A DNA stretch of 32,435 nucleotides from Actinomycetota bacterium (GTDB lineage Bacteria > Actinomycetota > AC-67). The translations under genes were made by a program, and so were the position numbers. Shown here in pieces: positions 10,277 through 16,960 of this stretch. Positions within the stretch are counted from its first letter, which is position 1; each line of letters starts with the position of its first letter. The stretch lies in contig JBBDRM010000080.1 of assembly GCA_040905475.1 (NCBI GenBank), positions 1-32,435 on the forward strand, given 5' to 3'. The notes below the pieces were generated by a model. That model saw only the letters and a program-made list of their open reading frames with translations. It was not told the origin of the DNA and did no database searches.

Positions 10277-11314
10277 ATGGGATACCGCACGATCGTCGTA
10301 GGCACGGACGGCTCCGAAACGTCCATGCTCGCCATGGAGAAGGCCGCGCGGCTCGCGAAGCAGGTGGAGGGCAAGCTGCTCGTCGTGTGCGCGACGGCGC
10401 CGGTCGGCCTGCACGACTACCGCGCGAAGGAGATCCTGACCGACGCTGCGTACGCGCTCGAGGCGTGGGGCGTCCAGGGCGAGACGATGTTCCGTGAGGG
10501 CCACCCCGACAAGGTCCTGCTCGACATCGCCGCGGAGCGGGACGCCGATCTCATCGTGATCGGCAACATCGGCGTCGGCAAAGCGAAGCGGTTCCGGATC
10601 GGGCCGATCCCCGAGCGTGTGGCGAGTGCGGCGCCGTGCGACGTGCTCATCGTGTACACGACCGACCTGAAATCGGAAGAAGGGCAGCAGCTCTACCATC
10701 GCATCCTCGTCGGCACCGACGGCTCCGCGACGGCGACCGAGGCCATCCGGAAGGCGTTCGATCTCGGCATGACCTTCATGCTCGGAGTGACCCTGTTGTA
10801 CGCGGCCGGCGACCGGATCATCGGCGCGATCGTTCTCGAGCAAGCGGCGAAAGCGAAGCATCGGACGCTGAAGGTCGATACACAGCTCGTCGACGGCGAT
10901 CCGGCCGACGCGATCCGCGAGACCGCCGAGAAGGAAGGCTGCGACCTGATCGTGGTCGGCAACCGCGGCATGACCGGAGTGCGCCGCCACCTGCTGGGCT
11001 CCGTGCCGACGAAGGTGATCCATTCCGCACCGACCGACGTCTTGATCGCCAAGACCGTCGACCGCACCGTGGAAGACCTCGCGCCGGGGACGGGCGGGCT
11101 CGTCGACGTCGACGGGCGCAAGCTCGCCGTCTACAAGGGCGAGGACGGGAACACCGTCGCGCTGTCTCCGCGCTGCACCCATCTCGGGTGCACGGTCGAC
11201 TGGAACGCAACGGCAGTCACCTGGGATTGCCCCTGCCACGGGTCGCGCTTCTCGAAAGAGGGCGACGTGGTGCAGGGCCCGGCGAAGACGCCCCTGGAAC
11301 GCGAAGCGCTCTAG
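10277..11314 (+). CDS. Tandem universal stress protein fused to a Rieske [2Fe-2S] domain
   Basis: A 345-residue three-domain protein. Domain 1 (about 1-125) and domain 2 (about 140-260) are UspA folds, each opening with the ATP-site strand (IVVGTDGSE and ILVGTDGSA). Domain 2 has a full G-x2-G-x9-GS nucleotide motif (GNRGMTGVRRHLLGS); domain 1 has the same spacing but GP instead of GS. The C-terminal part (about 265-345) is a Rieske domain with ligands Cys300, His302, Cys318 and His321 and the disulfide pair Cys305/Cys320 of the cytochrome bc1-type, high-potential class. No signal peptide is seen, so it is probably cytoplasmic. It is coupled to the membrane cupredoxin gene. The domain combination links ATP binding to a redox centre; its role is unknown. 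Its stop shares a CTAG with the convergent response regulator. Confidence 0.92.
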   Translation: MGYRTIVVGTDGSETSMLAMEKAARLAKQVEGKLLVVCATAPVGLHDYRAKEILTDAAYALEAWGVQGETMFREGHPDKVLLDIAAERDADLIVIGNIGVGKAKRFRIGPIPERVASAAPCDVLIVYTTDLKSEEGQQLYHRILVGTDGSATATEAIRKAFDLGMTFMLGVTLLYAAGDRIIGAIVLEQAAKAKHRTLKVDTQLVDGDPADAIRETAEKEGCDLIVVGNRGMTGVRRHLLGSVPTKVIHSAPTDVLIAKTVDRTVEDLAPGTGGLVDVDGRKLAVYKGEDGNTVALSPRCTHLGCTVDWNATAVTWDCPCHGSRFSKEGDVVQGPAKTPLEREAL

Positions 11315-11778
11315 GCGTTCGCCGCCTCGGACGGTTGCTCCGCTGGACGCCGTCCGGCCGCGAGATCGCGCAGCTTCGTGTGGAGCAGCCTCGTCTCGAG
11401 CAGGTTGCGGATCCGGAGCACGACCTCGTCGTGATCGAACGGCTTCTCGAGGAAGTCCTTGGCGCCGAGCTCGAGCGCGCGGTGCCGGTGCTCGGGGTTG
11501 ACGTCGGCGGTGAGGAAAACGATCGGCACCACGTCGTCTTCTTCCATCATGTCGTGCATCTTCCGCATCACGGTGAACCCGTCGATCGGGAACATCATGA
11601 GGTCGAGCAGGACGATGTCCGGCGACACCCGCTCGAAGGCCGCGAGCGCCTCGCGCGGGTCGGTGTAGCCGGTGATGTTCGTGAACCCGGCGTCGGTGAG
11701 GATGTAGCGGAGGAGCCGGATATGGATCTCCTGATCGTCGACGATCAGGATGCGCGCCCCCGACGGGTTGATGGCCAC
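11311..11778 (-). CDS. Single-domain response regulator (receiver protein)
   Basis: A 155-residue CheY-like receiver with acidic pocket Asp14-Asp15, phospho-acceptor Asp59 (IVLLDLMM), Thr90 and the conserved Lys112 (LEKPF). A roughly 30-residue basic tail follows with no DNA-binding or enzymatic output domain, so it probably works by protein contact or as a phosphorelay intermediate. No histidine kinase is in the window. The start is GTG 11778, chosen because GGAGGGGAG lies 5 bases upstream; the longer reading would add 28 residues unlike a receiver. It is convergent with the Usp-Rieske gene, overlapping by the 4-base CTAG that encodes both stops. Confidence 0.88.
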   Translation of the reverse strand: MAINPSGARILIVDDQEIHIRLLRYILTDAGFTNITGYTDPREALAAFERVSPDIVLLDLMMFPIDGFTVMRKMHDMMEEDDVVPIVFLTADVNPEHRHRALELGAKDFLEKPFDHDEVVLRIRNLLETRLLHTKLRDLAAGRRPAEQPSEAANA

Positions 11779-11889
11779 AGCAACTCCCCTCCACGGTCGG
11801 CTCGGGTACGGCCGCACACATGGCGGAGGACCGGCGCTCCGGCCGGGCGCTGATCGCGCCACTCATCACCGGACGACGCTCATCGTACG

Positions 11890-11972: not shown

Positions 11973-13094
11973 ATGCCTCCCCGCGCGAAGCGGCTCTGGA
12001 TCCCCCCGGTCTGGCTCGTCCGGCCGGCGGTGAGGTTCCGGAACGCGCTGGGACGGCTGCACGGCCGCATGGTTCCGCCGCCGCTACTGGTCATGGAACG
12101 CATGAACGGGATGGTCGAAGCGAAGATGATCTCGCTCATCGCCGAGCTCGCGATCCCCGATCGCCTCGCCGGCGGGCCGCGCACGGCCGGGGACCTCGCC
12201 GGTGAGGCCGGTGTCGACGCCGACGCGCTCGACAGGGCCCTGGCATTCATGGTTTCGCGCGGGCTCCTCGGCCGGAAACGCGACGGTCGGTTCACGAACA
12301 ACCCGTTCTCCGACACGCTTCGCTCGGACCATCCGCAGTCGATGCGTGGATGGGCCCGCTTCTTCGCGAGCGAATGGCATTGGGAGATGTGGAACCACGC
12401 CGGCCACTCGCTCGAGACCGGCGGAAGCGCCGCCGTGCCGGCGTTCGGCGCCGGCTTCTGGGAGTACCTGGGCTCGAAGAATCCGGAGGCCGGCGCGACG
12501 TTCAACCGTGCGCTGGCCGGCACCTCGCGGATCGCCGGGCCGATCCTCGCGAAGGGCTACGCCTTCTCGGGGGTGCGACGCTTGTGCGACGTCGGCGGCG
12601 GGACCGGCGGCATGCTCGCGGAGGTGCTGGAACGCCACCCGTCGATGCGCGGCGTGCTGTTCGATCTTCCCGAGGTCGTCGAGCAGGCGCGGCCGGCGCT
12701 CGCGGAGCAAGGCCTGCTCGATCGAGCGGAGATCGTCGCCGGAAGCTTCTTCGACTCGGTTCCCGAAGGATGCGACGCATACATGCTGCAAGCCATCATC
12801 CACGACTGGGACGACGAGTCCTGCGTGACGATCCTGTCGAACTGCCGGAAGGCGATGGCTCCCGGGGCGCGGATCCTGGTCATCGAGAACGTGCTGGGCC
12901 CGGCGCCGTCCTCGGCGGATCAGTTCGCGAGGTCGTTCGACCTGGTGATGCTGGTGACGTCGGGCCTCGGCCGGGAACGGTCGAAAGCGCAGTTCGAGTC
13001 GCTGTTCGCGCGGGCCGGGCTCCGTATCCGCCGGGATGTGACGCTACCGTCGTTGTTCCACGTCCTCGAGCTGCAAGCCGATCACTCGACGTAG
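11973..13094 (+). CDS. SAM-dependent O-methyltransferase (plant-type/polyketide OMT family)
   Basis: A 373-residue protein with the two-domain layout of the Methyltransf_2 family. An N-terminal winged-helix dimerisation domain (about 45-120, with AELAIPDRLAGGPRTAGDLA) precedes a Rossmann domain with SAM motif I LCDVGGGTGG (about 205-214), the acidic LFDLPEVV and the catalytic-type His in IIHDWDDE. Members methylate hydroxyl groups of small aromatic, polyketide or carotenoid compounds. A proline- and arginine-rich 30-residue N-terminal extension precedes the family start, so internal ATGs at 12069, 12093 or 12102 are alternatives. ATG 11973 is preferred for its upstream -10 element. It overlaps the convergent Rieske gene by 13 bases. 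Substrate unknown. Confidence 0.88.
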   Translation: MPPRAKRLWIPPVWLVRPAVRFRNALGRLHGRMVPPPLLVMERMNGMVEAKMISLIAELAIPDRLAGGPRTAGDLAGEAGVDADALDRALAFMVSRGLLGRKRDGRFTNNPFSDTLRSDHPQSMRGWARFFASEWHWEMWNHAGHSLETGGSAAVPAFGAGFWEYLGSKNPEAGATFNRALAGTSRIAGPILAKGYAFSGVRRLCDVGGGTGGMLAEVLERHPSMRGVLFDLPEVVEQARPALAEQGLLDRAEIVAGSFFDSVPEGCDAYMLQAIIHDWDDESCVTILSNCRKAMAPGARILVIENVLGPAPSSADQFARSFDLVMLVTSGLGRERSKAQFESLFARAGLRIRRDVTLPSLFHVLELQADHST

Positions 13095-13429
13095 AGCGTT
13101 CCGCCTTTGTCGGCGACCTTGCCGCGCCCCAGCGGCAGCACTTTCGTCAACGCCATGAAAGCCCGGCCCAAGCCGGGGATCTTCGCGAAGACACCCTGCG
13201 GCCCCCGCACCATCCGTCCGGACTTCACGTCGTAACGCGAGCCGTGCCACGGGCAAACGAGGCAGCCCTGCGCATCGATCGAGCCCTTCGCGAGATCCGC
13301 GTAGAGGTGGCGACAGCGGCGCGTCACCGCGAACACGTCGCCCTTCGCGTTTCCGACCGCCCACTTTCCGGCGCCGGTCACCGCGCCGGGTTTCAGATCG
13401 GACGCGGGCCCTACCTTCGTCGCCCCCAT
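13082..13429 (-). CDS. Small Rieske-type [2Fe-2S] ferredoxin
   Basis: A 115-residue protein with a single Rieske domain. Cluster ligands are Cys39 and His41 (CRH) and Cys59 and His62 (CPWH). It lacks the disulfide pair of bc1-type Rieske proteins, so it is of the low-potential, dioxygenase-ferredoxin-like type, used as an electron carrier in the cytoplasm. The longer open frame upstream is discarded because GGGAGG lies 6 bases before ATG 13429 and the protein then begins [15 protein letters not shown], a normal Rieske ferredoxin start. No partner oxygenase is adjacent; a P450 or oxygenase elsewhere may use it. It is divergent from the MoaD-like gene across 55 bases. Confidence 0.9.
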
Positions 13430-13471
13430 GGAAGCCTCCCAGCTGCCTTCGTGCCGAACGAGCGCGCAGCA

Positions 13472-13477
13472 TACACT
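13472..13477 (+). promoter_or_regulatory. Leaderless -10 (TACACT) for the MoaD-like gene
   Basis: TACACT lies exactly 7 bases before GTG 13485, the same spacing as in front of the GH15, adnA and ferredoxin (28422) genes. It sits in the 55-base gap shared with the divergent Rieske gene. No good -35 is seen. Confidence 0.5.
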
Positions 13478-13484
13478 TTGCGGT

Positions 13485-13754
13485 GTGGCGGTGGTCGTGT
13501 TGCGGTCCCCTTTGAAGGAGATGGCGGACGGGAACGGATCCGTTCCCGTCGAAGGGGCGACCGTGCTGGACTCGATCCGTTCGCTCGAGACCGCGTATCC
13601 GCGGATCGCCGGCTGGGTGCTCGACGAGACCGGCGCGTTGCGCCGGCACGTGAACATCTTCGTCGGCGGCGAGCGCGTCGAGCTCGATGCGGCGATCGAG
13701 GGCGATACCGAGATCACCGTCCTCCACGCGATCTCGGGAGGGGCGTATGGCTGA
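13485..13754 (+). CDS. MoaD/ThiS-like ubiquitin-fold sulfur carrier with masked C-terminal Gly-Gly
   Basis: An 89-residue beta-grasp protein: an N-terminal strand, a helix with [14 protein letters not shown], then [15 protein letters not shown] and [10 protein letters not shown], the usual MoaD/ThiS C-terminal pattern. In active carriers the Gly-Gly is the last pair and is adenylated and thiocarboxylated. Here Ala-Tyr-Gly follows, so a protease would be needed, as for QbsE in Pseudomonas, or the protein does not act as a carrier. The start is GTG 13485, 7 bases after TACACT; GTG 13491 and 13497 are alternatives. The upstream open frame is ignored. The gene overlaps the next one by 8 bases, so translation is coupled. 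Confidence 0.82.
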
Positions 13755-14823
13755 GCAGGCGGAGGTTCTCGTCGGTACCAGCAAGGGCTTGTTCGTGCTG
13801 CGCGGAAAGCGCGGCGGCCCGATGGAGGTTGCTGCGCGCCAGTTCCCCGGCGTCACCGTCGAGTACGCGGCGAGGGATCCGCGCGCGGGCGTCTACTACG
13901 CGTCGGTGACGGACGCGCACTTCGGTCCGCGCGTGTGGATGACGAAGGACGTCGAAGGCGAATGGGAGCAGACCGGCGGTCCCGCGTTCCCTGCCGACAC
14001 CGGTGAGGCGGTCGAACGGATCTGGGTGATCGTGCCCGGCGAAGGCGAAGGCGTCGTCTGGGCGGGCGTCGCGCCGGCGGCCCTGTTCCGCAGCGGCGAC
14101 GGCGGACGGACCTGGGAGCTGAACCGGGCGCTGTGGGATCATCCGAGCCGCAAGGACTGGCAGCCCGGCGCCGGCGGGATGTGCCTGCACTCGATCTGCC
14201 CTTGGCCCGGCGAGCCCGACAAGGTCGCGATCGGGATCTCGGCGGCCGGGGTCTGGCTGACGGATGACGGCGGGAGCAGCTGGCGTCGCGGCGTTCAAGG
14301 GATCGTCGCTCGATACCTTCCCGAGGACGCGCCTCAAGACGCGGCGGACCTGTGCGTGCACAACATGTACCGGGCGCCGCTACAGCCCGAGCGGCTGTGG
14401 ATGCAGTTCCACGGCGGCGTGTACCGATCCGACGACGCCGGCGAGTCGTGGAACGACGTGGGGTCGGAGGGCGGGCTCCCATCCGACTTCGGGTTCCCGA
14501 TGGTGATCGACCCGGCGGATCCGGCGCGCGCGTTCGTGATCCCGCTCACCGCCGACGTCGACCGAGTCACGCCCGACGGCAAGCTCCGCGTGTTCGAGAC
14601 CCGCGACGAGGGCTCGACCTGGAAGGCGCGGACGAAGGGGCTGCCGCAGAAGAACACCTACCTCACGATCCTCCGGCAGGCGTTCTGTCACGACGGCCGG
14701 GATCCGCTCGGCCTGTACTTCGGCGACAAGGCAGGGACCGTGTACGGGTCGGCCGACGCCGGAGCATCGTGGAAAGCGGTCGCCCAGCGACTGCCGTCGA
14801 TCGCGAGCGTCCGCGCGTCCTAG
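13747..14823 (+). CDS. BNR/Asp-box repeat beta-propeller protein
   Basis: A 358-residue beta-propeller protein with at least five Asp-box repeats of the S/T-x-D-x-G-x-T/S-W type: [32 protein letters not shown] and SADAGASW. There is no signal peptide, so it is probably cytoplasmic. Such propellers are seen in sialidases and photosystem II assembly factors, but catalytic sialidase residues cannot be claimed here. The ATG at 13747 lies 8 bases inside the MoaD-like gene, with GGGAGGGG as its ribosome site (which also encodes the Gly-Gly of that gene). The tight coupling argues that the two proteins work together; the activity is unknown. Confidence 0.82.
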
Positions 14824-14946
14824 CTCGCCGTGGCCTGGACTACGCCGGTGAGCATCGTGAAGCGCGACGGATCCCGATGGCTGGTGGCGCCTACGGGATC
14901 GTGGGATGGGTCCACAACGCACGCGCGGCCGGTCGGGTCACGCTCA

Positions 14947-14962
14947 GCCGAGGCGGCTCGGC
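14947..14962 (+). terminator. Possible stem-loop between the BNR and GH15 genes
   Basis: GCCGAG-GCGG-CTCGGC forms a 6-base-pair stem with a 4-base loop, in the 262-base gap after the BNR gene. No run of T follows, so if it terminates transcription it would not be a classic intrinsic terminator. The rest of the gap holds the repeats, palindrome and promoter described separately. Confidence 0.3.
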
Positions 14963-15000
14963 ATCCGGTGTTCCGGGTGGAGCCCTCGCTCCCGGAGGGA

Positions 15001-15018
15001 CAGACATGACAGACATGA
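15001..15018 (+). repeat. Two tandem 9-base repeats upstream of the GH15 promoter
   Basis: CAGACATGA is repeated twice in tandem and followed by a partial CAG. The array lies 32-49 bases upstream of the -35 element and ends 20 bases before the 16-base palindrome. It may be an activator or repressor site, or part of a repetitive extragenic element together with the palindrome. Confidence 0.5.
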
Positions 15019-15038
15019 CAGTCACTCCCCGGAGGAGC

Positions 15039-15054
15039 GTCAGACGCGTCTGAC
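15039..15054. promoter_or_regulatory. 16-base palindrome overlapping the -35 of the GH15 promoter
   Basis: GTCAGACGCGTCTGAC is a perfect 16-base palindrome whose right arm covers five of six bases of the -35 (CTGACA, 15050-15055). A bound dimer there would block RNA polymerase, so a repressor operator is the natural reading. The GTCTGACA core also occurs twice at 31095-31126, which raises an alternative: a repetitive extragenic palindrome. Confidence 0.5.
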
Positions 15055-15078
15055 ACCCCTGGACGCGAGCCGTATCCT
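15050..15078 (+). promoter_or_regulatory. Promoter of the GH15 gene, leaderless
   Basis: CTGACA (15050-15055) and TATCCT (15073-15078) are separated by 17 bases, the ideal spacer for a SigA-type promoter. GTG 15086 follows the -10 by 7 bases, so the transcript should begin at or next to the start codon. This is the clearest promoter in the window. Confidence 0.65.
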
Positions 15079-15085
15079 TGGCCTC

Positions 15086-16960
15086 GTGAATCGCATCGGG
15101 GACTACGCGCTCATCGGTGACTGTCACTCGGCCGCGCTGGTCGGCCGCGACGGATCGATCGACTGGGCGTGCTTCCCGCGGTTTGACTCCCCCGCCGCGT
15201 TCTCGAAGATCCTCGACGCCGCCCAAGGCGGATCGTTCGCGATCACGCCCGAGGGCGTCCGCGAGGTCCGTCGCGCCTACATCGACGGCACCAACGTGCT
15301 CGTGACGACCTTCGTGTGCGAGGGCGGCGTGTTCGAGCTGACGGACTGCATGCCGGTCGAGCGCACCGACGACGAGCACCCGGTCGGGATGATCCCCCAC
15401 CACGCGATCATGCGCCGAGCGCGTTGCGTCGCGGGTTCGGTCGACGTCGCAGTGCGGATCGACCCACGTTTCGAGTACGCCTCGTGCTGCCCACGCTTCC
15501 GCCAAGCCGGCGATCACGCGGTCGAGATCGTCGGCGGCGCCGATGCGCTCTACGTCCAGTCGACGCACCCCATCGAAGCCACCAAGGACGCCGTCGAAGC
15601 GACGTGGCCGCTCCGCGCCGGCGAGGAAGCCTGGATCGACGCGGTATGGCGCGTCTCGTATCAGCCGAAGCGCCAGCACGGCAACGCGCTCCGTTACCGG
15701 GTCGAGGGCGCGCGGCGGCTCGCCGCGACCGAAGACTTCTGGCGCAGCTGGCTGGCCGGATGCACCTACGAAGGCATCCACGAGGCGGCCGTGCACCGCA
15801 GCGCGCTCGCGCTGAAGGCGCTGACCTACGCGCCGAGCGGCGCGATCGTCGCCGCGCCGACCACCTCGCTGCCGGAGTCGATCGGCGGCGGACGGAACTG
15901 GGACTACCGCTACACCTGGATACGCGACGCCACGCTGACACTCACGTCCCTGTTCGCGCTGGGCTTCACGCGCGAGGCCGACCAGTTCAAGGCGTGGCTC
16001 GAGCGCACCGGCGCCGGCCGGCCCGAGGACCTCCAGATCATGTACGGCGTCGGCGGCGAGCGCTCGCTCCCCGAGCGTGAGCTCGAGCATCTCGCCGGCC
16101 ACCGCGACTCGGCGCCGGTTCGGGTCGGCAACGGCGCCGTGAAGCAGCTGCAGCTCGACGCGTACGGGCAGATCCTCGAGGCCGCATATCTGTACGGGAA
16201 GGCCGGCGGGGAGCTGACCGAGAGCAACTGGACGTTCCTTGCCGGGCTCGCAGACATCGCGTGCGAGCGATGGCAACACCCCGATCAGGGCATCTGGGAG
16301 ATCCGCGACCCGCCGCGCCACTTCGTCCACTCGAAGCTCAACTGCTGGATAGCCCTGGATCGTGCGGTGCGGATCGCACGGGCGTTCAACCTGCCGGGCG
16401 CGGTGGACGAATGGGAGGCGCAGCGCGACGCGATCAAGGACTACCTCCTCGAGCAGGCCGCGCCCGACGGCTGGTTCCATCAGGCGGTCGGCAATCCCGT
16501 CCCCGACGCCTCCACGCTGCTCGTCCCGTCGAGCGGGCTGATCGCATCAAGCGACCCGCTCTCGATCGGCACGATCGACGCAGTGATGCGGTCGATCTCG
16601 CGCGACGGGTTCGTGTACCGGTACCTGTCGCCCGACGGCCTCACCGGCGACGAGGGGGCGTTCCTCCTGTGCAGCTTCTGGCTGGTCGATTGCCTCACGC
16701 ACGCCGGCCGGATCGAGGAAGCGGAGGAGCTCCTCGACAAGCTCGTCGGACTGGCGAACGACGTCGGACTGCTGGCAGAGGAGGCCGACCCGGCGACCGG
16801 CGAGCCGCTCGGCAACTTCCCGCAAGCCTTCTCGCACATGGCGTTGGTTCTCTCCTGCACGTACCTGTCCGCAGCGAAGCGCGGAGAGATACCCGACGAA
16901 CCACTGGACTATGCGGAGGCAGCGCTCGAACGGCTGAGGGCCGGCACCCGCGAGAGCTAG
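15086..16960 (+). CDS. Glycoside hydrolase family 15 protein (trehalase/glucoamylase-like)
   Basis: A 624-residue enzyme. The N-terminal segment IGDYALIGDCHSAALVG followed by GSIDWACFPRFDSPA is typical of bacterial GH15 proteins of the actinobacterial trehalase group. The (alpha/alpha)6 catalytic domain carries GGRNWDYRYTWIRDA (about 267-281), the acid-region motif GIWEIRDPPRHFVHSK (about 400-415) and the base-region DEGAFLLCSFWLVD (about 522-535). It should hydrolyse an alpha-linked glucoside such as trehalose or a malto-oligosaccharide; sequence alone does not decide which. No signal peptide is present, so it is probably cytoplasmic. GTG 15086 is chosen over the longer open frame because it gives the family N-terminus and sits 7 bases after a good -10. 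Its stop is shared with the convergent adnB. Confidence 0.9.
   Translation: MNRIGDYALIGDCHSAALVGRDGSIDWACFPRFDSPAAFSKILDAAQGGSFAITPEGVREVRRAYIDGTNVLVTTFVCEGGVFELTDCMPVERTDDEHPVGMIPHHAIMRRARCVAGSVDVAVRIDPRFEYASCCPRFRQAGDHAVEIVGGADALYVQSTHPIEATKDAVEATWPLRAGEEAWIDAVWRVSYQPKRQHGNALRYRVEGARRLAATEDFWRSWLAGCTYEGIHEAAVHRSALALKALTYAPSGAIVAAPTTSLPESIGGGRNWDYRYTWIRDATLTLTSLFALGFTREADQFKAWLERTGAGRPEDLQIMYGVGGERSLPERELEHLAGHRDSAPVRVGNGAVKQLQLDAYGQILEAAYLYGKAGGELTESNWTFLAGLADIACERWQHPDQGIWEIRDPPRHFVHSKLNCWIALDRAVRIARAFNLPGAVDEWEAQRDAIKDYLLEQAAPDGWFHQAVGNPVPDASTLLVPSSGLIASSDPLSIGTIDAVMRSISRDGFVYRYLSPDGLTGDEGAFLLCSFWLVDCLTHAGRIEEAEELLDKLVGLANDVGLLAEEADPATGEPLGNFPQAFSHMALVLSCTYLSAAKRGEIPDEPLDYAEAALERLRAGTRES

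What the first reader, a model, noticed from the sequence alone, without database searches (positions are those of the whole stretch)
13485..14823. MoaD-like protein with masked Gly-Gly, locked to a BNR propeller gene
The beta-grasp protein ends ISGG-AYG instead of at Gly-Gly. The extra codons overlap the start of a five-repeat Asp-box propeller gene, and the Gly-Gly codons double as its ribosome site. Masked carriers such as QbsE need a JAMM protease to expose Gly-Gly; none is in the window. The coupled pair may be a protein-modification or sulfur-transfer system of unknown purpose, with a divergent Rieske ferredoxin next to it.
Basis: partly seen in the sequence, partly recalled or inferred. 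Interest (0 to 1): 0.55.

Follow-up and report, generated by a model that had tools for sequence, protein, structure and literature searches.

The report
Ubiquitin-like sulfur carrier coupled to propeller
A small ubiquitin-like protein and a propeller-shaped protein of unknown job are encoded as a tightly linked pair, and in some relatives as one fused chain, in bacteria of several phyla; the odd tail on the small protein here is not conserved, but the pair looks like an uncharacterised sulfur-transfer system.

Summary
In detail: the ThiS/MoaD-like ORF (13485-13754) ends ISGG-AYG, overlaps by 8 nt an ATG-started, five-Asp-box propeller ORF (13747-14823), and its Gly-Gly codons (GGAGGG) look like that gene's ribosome site. 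The tail is not a conserved mask. Of the 80 best named propeller loci (of 147 found) 75 have a carrier gene next upstream; all 75 keep [I/V][S/T]GG. Of these, 35 stop at GG, 20 add 1-4 unconserved residues, and 20 are in-frame carrier-propeller fusions with GG kept inside. GGAGG occurs at these codons in 47/55 split pairs but 3/20 fusions, which supports a working ribosome site. The pair also occurs in Acidobacteriota, Gemmatimonadota (one record) and Pseudomonadota, and in reverse order in other Actinomycetota. JAMM and MoeZ-type E1 genes exist elsewhere in this genome. The neighbouring Rieske gene was not found beside the relatives. The propeller resembles 3B7F (function unknown) and has invariant His/Gln/Arg and a near-invariant Cys. 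Best reading: a sulfur carrier with its dedicated partner subunit, analogous to MoaD-MoaE, whose fused or tailed forms are cut after GG, probably by JAMM. Cleavage, sulfur transfer and substrate are inferred.

The parts
13485..13754 (+). ThiS/MoaD-like sulfur-carrier ORF, 89 aa, GTG start, ends ISGG-AYG
   Evidence: PF02597 above cut-off; nearest solved chains by sequence 4n6e (ThiS/MoaD family protein) and small archaeal modifier protein 1
13737..13742 (+). Gly-Gly codons GGA GGG, also the likely Shine-Dalgarno core of the propeller gene
   Evidence: sequence; GGAGG kept in 47/55 split pairs against 3/20 fusions
13743..13751 (+). three-codon tail Ala-Tyr-Gly after Gly-Gly; not conserved
13747..13754 (+). 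8-nt overlap: propeller ATG inside the end of the carrier ORF
13747..14823 (+). Asp-box (BNR) beta-propeller ORF, 358 aa, five Asp-boxes; H148, H205, Q220, H222, R227 and R310 invariant in 74 of 74 aligned relatives
   Evidence: model of the window protein pLDDT 93.1 (not searched by fold); the homologous propeller domain of fusion L113 matches 3B7F at Z 49.5, 34% identity

Best explanation
The two ORFs are one functional module: a ubiquitin-like sulfur carrier and its dedicated partner, an Asp-box propeller. Supported by sequence comparison: coupling through Gly-Gly codons that double as ribosome site; tight and wide gene pairing; Gly-Gly kept in nearly every carrier seen, even inside fused chains. 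Inferred: MoeZ (E1 plus rhodanese), encoded elsewhere in the genome, adenylates and thiocarboxylates the carrier's terminal glycine; where the glycines are not terminal (AYG tail here, fused chain in relatives) the JAMM protease encoded elsewhere first cuts after them; the thiocarboxylate is then used on the propeller, which has an invariant His/Gln/Arg and near-invariant Cys set and plays the part that MoaE plays for MoaD and ThiG for ThiS. The acceptor is unknown. The AYG tail itself is most simply an outcome of placing the next start codon inside the end of this gene.
For: Of the 80 best named propeller loci (147 found) 75 have the carrier next upstream and 75 of 75 keep [IV][ST]GG. 20 of the 75 are fusions; G84 and G85 are invariant in 20 of 20 (two of nine invariant carrier columns) although the carrier domains share a median of 48% identity, and what follows GG varies in kind and length. 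GGAGG codons: 47/55 split, 3/20 fused, Fisher p 2.7e-8; GGA is 7.9% of Gly codons in the propeller genes. In 20 chosen mostly distant loci of the phylum sample the carrier is beside the propeller in 15, downstream in 14 of those. Plasmid records: beside it in 10 of 14 read, GG in 9 of those 10. Own genome has JAMM and MoeZ. JAMM in 37 of 37 pair-bearing genomes put to (two weak); E1 in 28 of 28. Precedents: MoaX, a MoaD-MoaE fusion, is cut after Gly-Gly by an unidentified protease and needs the cut (PMC4326299, abstract and passages); DRJAMM cuts a MoaD-MoaE fusion (PMC8832034, passages); capped carriers ending MV or C, with a JAMM gene, in Streptomyces platensis (PMC6006322, passages); ThiS-ThiG and MoaD-MoaE fusions (PMC1779556, passages).
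Against: No biochemistry. JAMM and E1 are common and serve other carriers, so co-occurrence is weak: in the phylum sample JAMM (E 0.001) is in 72 of 75 propeller genomes against 133 of 221 others, kinship not controlled. G244, whose carrier has a GG-S tail, shows no JAMM (84% complete; it was not among the 37). Five of 80 named loci, five of 20 chosen loci (one of them, L137, on a contig of the same length as named L071) and four of 14 plasmid loci have the propeller without a carrier found beside it, and the Nonomuraea carrier L142 ends VLPALA without GG, so the propeller may work alone in some bacteria. Tails also occur where the carrier is the downstream gene (4 of 13 whose GG end was seen), so overlap is not their only cause. 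GG might be kept for flexibility or fold alone. The gene for JAMM was not found beside the pair.
Confidence: 0.58

Rival explanations
1. Simple overlap drift around an ordinary free-standing carrier: the tail means nothing, the carrier serves general sulfur transfer (Moco, cysteine), and the propeller is only a co-transcribed neighbour.
For: Tails are short as a rule and unconserved; 35 of 75 have clean GG. The genome has a MoaE.
Against: The pairing is seen in four phyla, in both gene orders and as fusions, which a mere neighbour would hardly do. The genome has at least two other ThiS-family ORFs beside other genes (a CysO-like one by a cysteine-synthase-like ORF, L001; one by a threonine-synthase-like ORF, L117).
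Confidence: 0.2
2. The carrier domain is a structural or regulatory domain of the propeller, and Gly-Gly is just a flexible hinge; no activation or cleavage takes place.
For: In the model of fusion L113 the only stretch of three or more residues with pLDDT under 50 is 82-85 (I-S-G-G), between two confident domains.
Against: A hinge would not need two invariant glycines while the linker after them varies freely in length and sequence; split pairs keep GG at or near the C-terminus.
Confidence: 0.15
3. The carrier is a protein modifier (SAMP-like) and the propeller is its target, adaptor or binding protein.
For: The best NCBIfam model is SAMP1 (41.2 bits, cut-off 60, not reached); propellers are common peptide-binding platforms (general knowledge).
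Against: Searches of the 80 loci with the own JAMM found none beside the pair, and with MoeZ one weak match, in L067; other conjugation genes were not sought. Not excluded.
Confidence: 0.12
4. Sequencing or assembly error split a fused gene in the window.
For: The window lies inside a fusion-rich clade (24 rows, 17 fused, SH-aLRT 97) and the two frames differ by one.
Against: GGAGG goes with split members (47/55) and not with fusions (3/20); L039, L042 and L043 in the same clade are split with GGAGG and an overlapping start.
Confidence: 0.06

Closest known systems
MoaX / DR2607, fused MoaD-MoaE molybdopterin synthases (PMC4326299, PMC8832034)
   Same: ThiS/MoaD-fold carrier fused in front of its partner with Gly-Gly inside the chain; MoaX is cut directly after GG, DR2607 is cut by a JAMM to leave a C-terminal Gly
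   Different: partner here is an Asp-box propeller, not MoaE; acceptor unknown; cleavage not shown; in the window itself the two are separate ORFs
Capped sulfur carriers PtmS2/PtmS3 with JAMM protease PtmS1 and MoeZ-type PtmS4 (PMC6006322); QbsE with QbsD (QbsE recalled)
   Same: one or two extra residues after Gly-Gly, with JAMM and E1 genes in the genome
   Different: the tail here overlaps the next gene and is unconserved; no JAMM gene was found beside the pair
CysO / CysM / Mec+ cysteine pathway
   Same: same fold family (chain 3dwg_C, which I recall as CysO, E 3.3e-4); this genome has its own CysO-like, CysM-like, JAMM cluster (L001)
   Different: a separate carrier; its partner is a propeller, not a cysteine synthase
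3B7F, Reut_B4987 / YP_299179.1, Asp-box propeller of Ralstonia eutropha
   Same: same propeller family: Z 49.5, 34% identity to the fusion model, profile E 2.1e-77; seven blades and five Asp-boxes (PMC2716378, passages)
   Different: that paper lists its function as not known; its gene neighbourhood was not read here, but a Cupriavidus metallidurans locus has the pair

Membership tests
ThiS/MoaD sulfur-carrier family (PF02597) | profile match above cut-off | tested here: met
   27.9 bits against 22.5
ThiS/MoaD sulfur-carrier family (PF02597) | Gly-Gly at the mature C-terminus | tested here: inconclusive
   encoded three residues short of the end here; terminal in 35 of 75 named orthologues; the mature end cannot be seen
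ThiS/MoaD sulfur-carrier family (PF02597) | activation by E1 and thiocarboxylate formation | not testable with these tools
   a MoeZ-type gene is present; no chemistry
SAMP1 (NF041918) | score above the curated cut-off | tested here: not met
   41.2 against 60 bits
Masked carrier of the QbsE/PtmS2 kind | tail after Gly-Gly | tested here: met
   AYG
Masked carrier of the QbsE/PtmS2 kind | JAMM protease gene beside the carrier | tested here: not met
   no PF14464 match on the window's contig; none in 80 related loci by phmmer with the own JAMM at E 1e-5, flanks incomplete; one elsewhere in the genome
Molybdopterin synthase | MoaE partner beside or fused | tested here: not met
   partner is a propeller; the only MoaE match is on another contig
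Exo-alpha-sialidase (name given in some plasmid annotations) | sialidase catalytic residues and activity | not tested
   only Asp-boxes and propeller fold seen; catalytic set not compared

The most novel reading that the evidence does not exclude
A new branch of sulfur-carrier chemistry: a ubiquitin-like carrier whose acceptor subunit is an Asp-box propeller with an invariant His/Gln/Arg and near-invariant Cys site, made in some bacteria as a polyprotein that JAMM cuts after Gly-Gly in the manner of ubiquitin precursors, and yielding a thio-product not yet described.
Probability: 0.35. Interest if true: 0.75.

Novelty: new variant of a known kind. Interest (0 to 1): 0.52.

Why it matters
A protein family with a solved structure (3B7F, released 2007) that a 2009 study lists as function not known gains a frequent partner and a testable biochemical setting. 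Natural carrier-propeller fusions with invariant internal Gly-Gly give a direct test of JAMM processing outside molybdopterin synthase. Codons for the functional glycines that double as the next gene's ribosome site, with the fusions as a natural control, are a neat case of one constraint serving two ends.

Tried and rejected
A conserved mask: rejected. Rieske ferredoxin as third member: no homologue found in the 80 loci. A local JAMM or E1 gene: none by phmmer with the own JAMM and one weak MoeZ match in L067. Fourteen stop-to-stop window frames starting between 8 and 22 kb match the 80 loci by blastp: two are the pair, eleven overlap it on one strand or the other (shadow frames), and one is the response-regulator ORF at 11311-11862 (minus), whose nine matches lie in other ORFs (three read: receiver-LpxC fusions). 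Promoter and terminator scan of 13380-15150 gave one weak promoter-like site at 15050-15078 and no terminator. Placing the invariant residues in space was wanted, but model coordinates are not in the Python box, so a shared active site is not shown. SAMP1 membership: below cut-off. Paper searches for the pair: searches gave none, five, one, twelve papers; by titles and abstract starts none is about the pair; of these I saw passages of PMC1779556, PMC1949818 and PMC2716378 only. Dropped rows: of 30 loci (the best matches; 175 of 296 genomes matched) four (L031, L032, L034, L035) have no propeller found beside them and are not in the 26 counted; of 147 propeller stretches the best 80 were kept; hit H13 was not read; 6 of 14 plasmid propellers were cut to one profile domain and are not counted for residues; fusions L040, L041 and L044 were left out of A3, but not of A4; four weak propeller genomes (G011, G247, G263, G289) were left out of the 75.

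Full report
WHAT IS THERE. The window encodes an 89-residue ThiS/MoaD-like protein from GTG 13485 to the stop at 13752-13754 and a 358-residue Asp-box propeller from ATG 13747 to 14823. The first ends ISGG-AYG; the last 8 nt of its ORF overlap the start of the second, in another frame. The Gly-Gly codons are GGA GGG and end 4 nt before the ATG, as a Shine-Dalgarno core would. Pfam gives ThiS for the first and Sortilin-Vps10 plus just sub-threshold BNR for the second.

IS THE MASK CONSERVED? No. A carrier search in 296 genomes of the phylum matched in 175; the 30 best places became loci, and 26 of these (the window's own among them) have the propeller next door: 3 stop at GG, 12 carry 1 to 25 further residues, 11 run on in frame into the propeller. 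One tail (L029) is 25 residues, most of them read from another frame of the propeller gene. A propeller scan of the named genome collection found 147 stretches and kept the best 80; 75 have a carrier next upstream: 35 stop at GG (33 binned so, plus L097 and L100, whose alignments ended early), 20 have 1-4 extra residues without common sequence, 20 are in-frame fusions, and all 75 keep [IV][ST]GG. Nine of the 11 fusions lie on contigs of the same length as contigs of the named set, so distinct fusions number about 22.

DUAL USE OF THE GLY-GLY CODONS. GGAGG is present at these codons in 47 of 55 split pairs and 3 of 20 fusions (Fisher p 2.7e-8); the first Gly codon is GGA in 47 of 55, while GGA makes up 7.9% of 3674 Gly codons in the propeller genes. 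Related sequences are not independent, so the p-value is a guide. Fusions, which need no second start, mostly lack the motif. This supports a functional ribosome site in the window and speaks against a sequencing error.

FUSIONS. In the 20 fusions (Actinomycetota, Acidobacteriota, one Gemmatimonadota record, two records without a named phylum) the carrier domains share a median of 48% identity, yet both glycines are invariant; the stretch from GG to the propeller's first strand varies from about 4 to about 80 residues. Seven other carrier columns do not vary: L5, L9, G42, W43, R52, H54, F58 (gaps set aside). A tree of the propellers puts the window inside a set of 24 rows of which 17 are fused (SH-aLRT 97), with the split L042 as nearest neighbour (83); fused against split needs at least 4 changes. 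Fission from a fused ancestor is thus possible for the window, but the direction is not settled.

BREADTH. That the unnamed phylum is Actinomycetota is inferred from contigs of equal length in the named set. In the phylum sample the propeller profile matches 79 of 296 genomes at E 1e-20; I used the 75 with E 1e-60 or better. I read 20 loci of these, mostly distant ones: 15 have the carrier beside the propeller, 14 of them downstream, that is in reverse order; GG ends were seen in 14, ten clean and four with 1-5 more residues, and one hit (L129) stopped before its end. The other five have none in the stretch read; three are from one unnamed genus (L124-L126), and L137 lies on a contig as long as that of L071. 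Of 15 plasmid-collection hits I read 14: carrier beside it in 10 (eight Pseudomonadota upstream, two Actinomycetota downstream), GG in 9 of 10; none found in three Rhodobacterales records and one Streptomyces record. The four sampled members of the window's own family have no propeller match.

PROPELLER. AlphaFold2 gives mean pLDDT 93.8 for the fusion L113 and 93.1 for the window protein. The nearest solved chain to the fusion model is 3B7F (Z 49.5, rmsd 1.9, 351 aligned, 34%); the next rows stand at Z 27. A 2009 study lists 3B7F as seven-bladed with five Asp-boxes and function not known (PMC2716378, passages). In 74 aligned propellers H148, H205, Q220, H222, R227 and R310 are in 74, C203 in 73, R273 in 72; in the eight plasmid rows that aligned fully all hold except C203, which is in 5. 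In the 3B7F alignment H148, C203, Q220, H222, R227, R273 and R310 have counterparts and H205 faces a gap (my reading).

MACHINERY. Own genome: JAMM (PF14464, 83.7 bits) in a cluster that reads SelD-like, JAMM, CysO-like ending AGGR, CysM-like; a MoeZ-like E1 with rhodanese; a MoaE; and a further ThiS-family ORF beside a threonine-synthase-like ORF (names other than the Pfam ones are my reading). JAMM matches in 37 of 37 pair genomes put, in G266 and G296 only weakly; E1 in 28 of 28. Across the phylum sample JAMM (E 0.001) occurs in 72 of 75 propeller genomes and 133 of 221 others (from the lists); kinship is uncontrolled. The three exceptions are G008 and G084, whose carriers end in clean GG (L130, L131), and G244, 84% complete, with a GG-S tail (L012), which stands against the need for JAMM unless its gene is in the missing part.

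MECHANISM. By analogy with MoaD-MoaE and ThiS-ThiG, the fusions and the close pairing suggest that the propeller is the carrier's acceptor-side partner. MoaX is cut between Gly82 and Ser83 and needs this for activity, Gly81 being needed for the cut by a protease not yet identified (PMC4326299); a JAMM protein cuts the Deinococcus MoaD-MoaE fusion (PMC8832034). Capped carriers with a JAMM gene are described in Streptomyces (PMC6006322). Shown here by comparison: coupling, pairing, GG retention, presence of machinery. Inferred: cleavage, thiocarboxylation, transfer, active site.

NOVELTY. Two comparative studies of prokaryotic ubiquitin-like domains were searched for the partner: PMC1779556 has no occurrence of propeller, sialidase or BNR; PMC1949818 has one of propeller, not shown to me, and none of sialidase, BNR or neuraminidase. 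In the listings no paper is about the pair by title or abstract start. I call it a new variant of a known kind.

Noticed in passing
window 10277-11314 (+): A 345-aa ORF joins universal-stress-protein domains (PF00582, 172 bits, three stretches) to a C-terminal Rieske domain (PF00355, 57 bits), an unusual fusion.
   Followed up: partly
L064:3351-4835 (-), L051:3320-4801 (-), L043:3369-4868 (-): In these Acidobacteriota loci the divergent gene just upstream of the pair is a response-regulator receiver fused to LpxC (PF00072 plus PF03331); four further Acidobacteriota loci (L041, L045, L049, L063) have a receiver-type match at a similar place.
   Followed up: partly
window 13082-13429 (-): Stand-alone Rieske protein next to the pair, the second Rieske domain within 2 kb; not found beside the relatives.
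   Followed up: partly
L001:1163-1441 (-): This genome's CysO-like carrier also runs one residue past Gly-Gly (AGGR), beside a JAMM and a cysteine-synthase-like gene.
   Followed up: partly
L117:2141-2587 (-): A further ThiS-family ORF ending AVAGG beside a threonine-synthase-like ORF.
   Followed up: no
L142 (Nonomuraea), downstream of the propeller: Carrier-like ORF ends VLPALA without Gly-Gly, the one clear absence of it seen.
   Followed up: no
L029: Carrier tail after Gly-Gly is 25 residues, mostly read from another frame of the propeller gene.
   Followed up: no
L040:4521-6068 (Gemmatimonadota record): Fusion with a long, strongly basic linker between Gly-Gly and the propeller.
   Followed up: no
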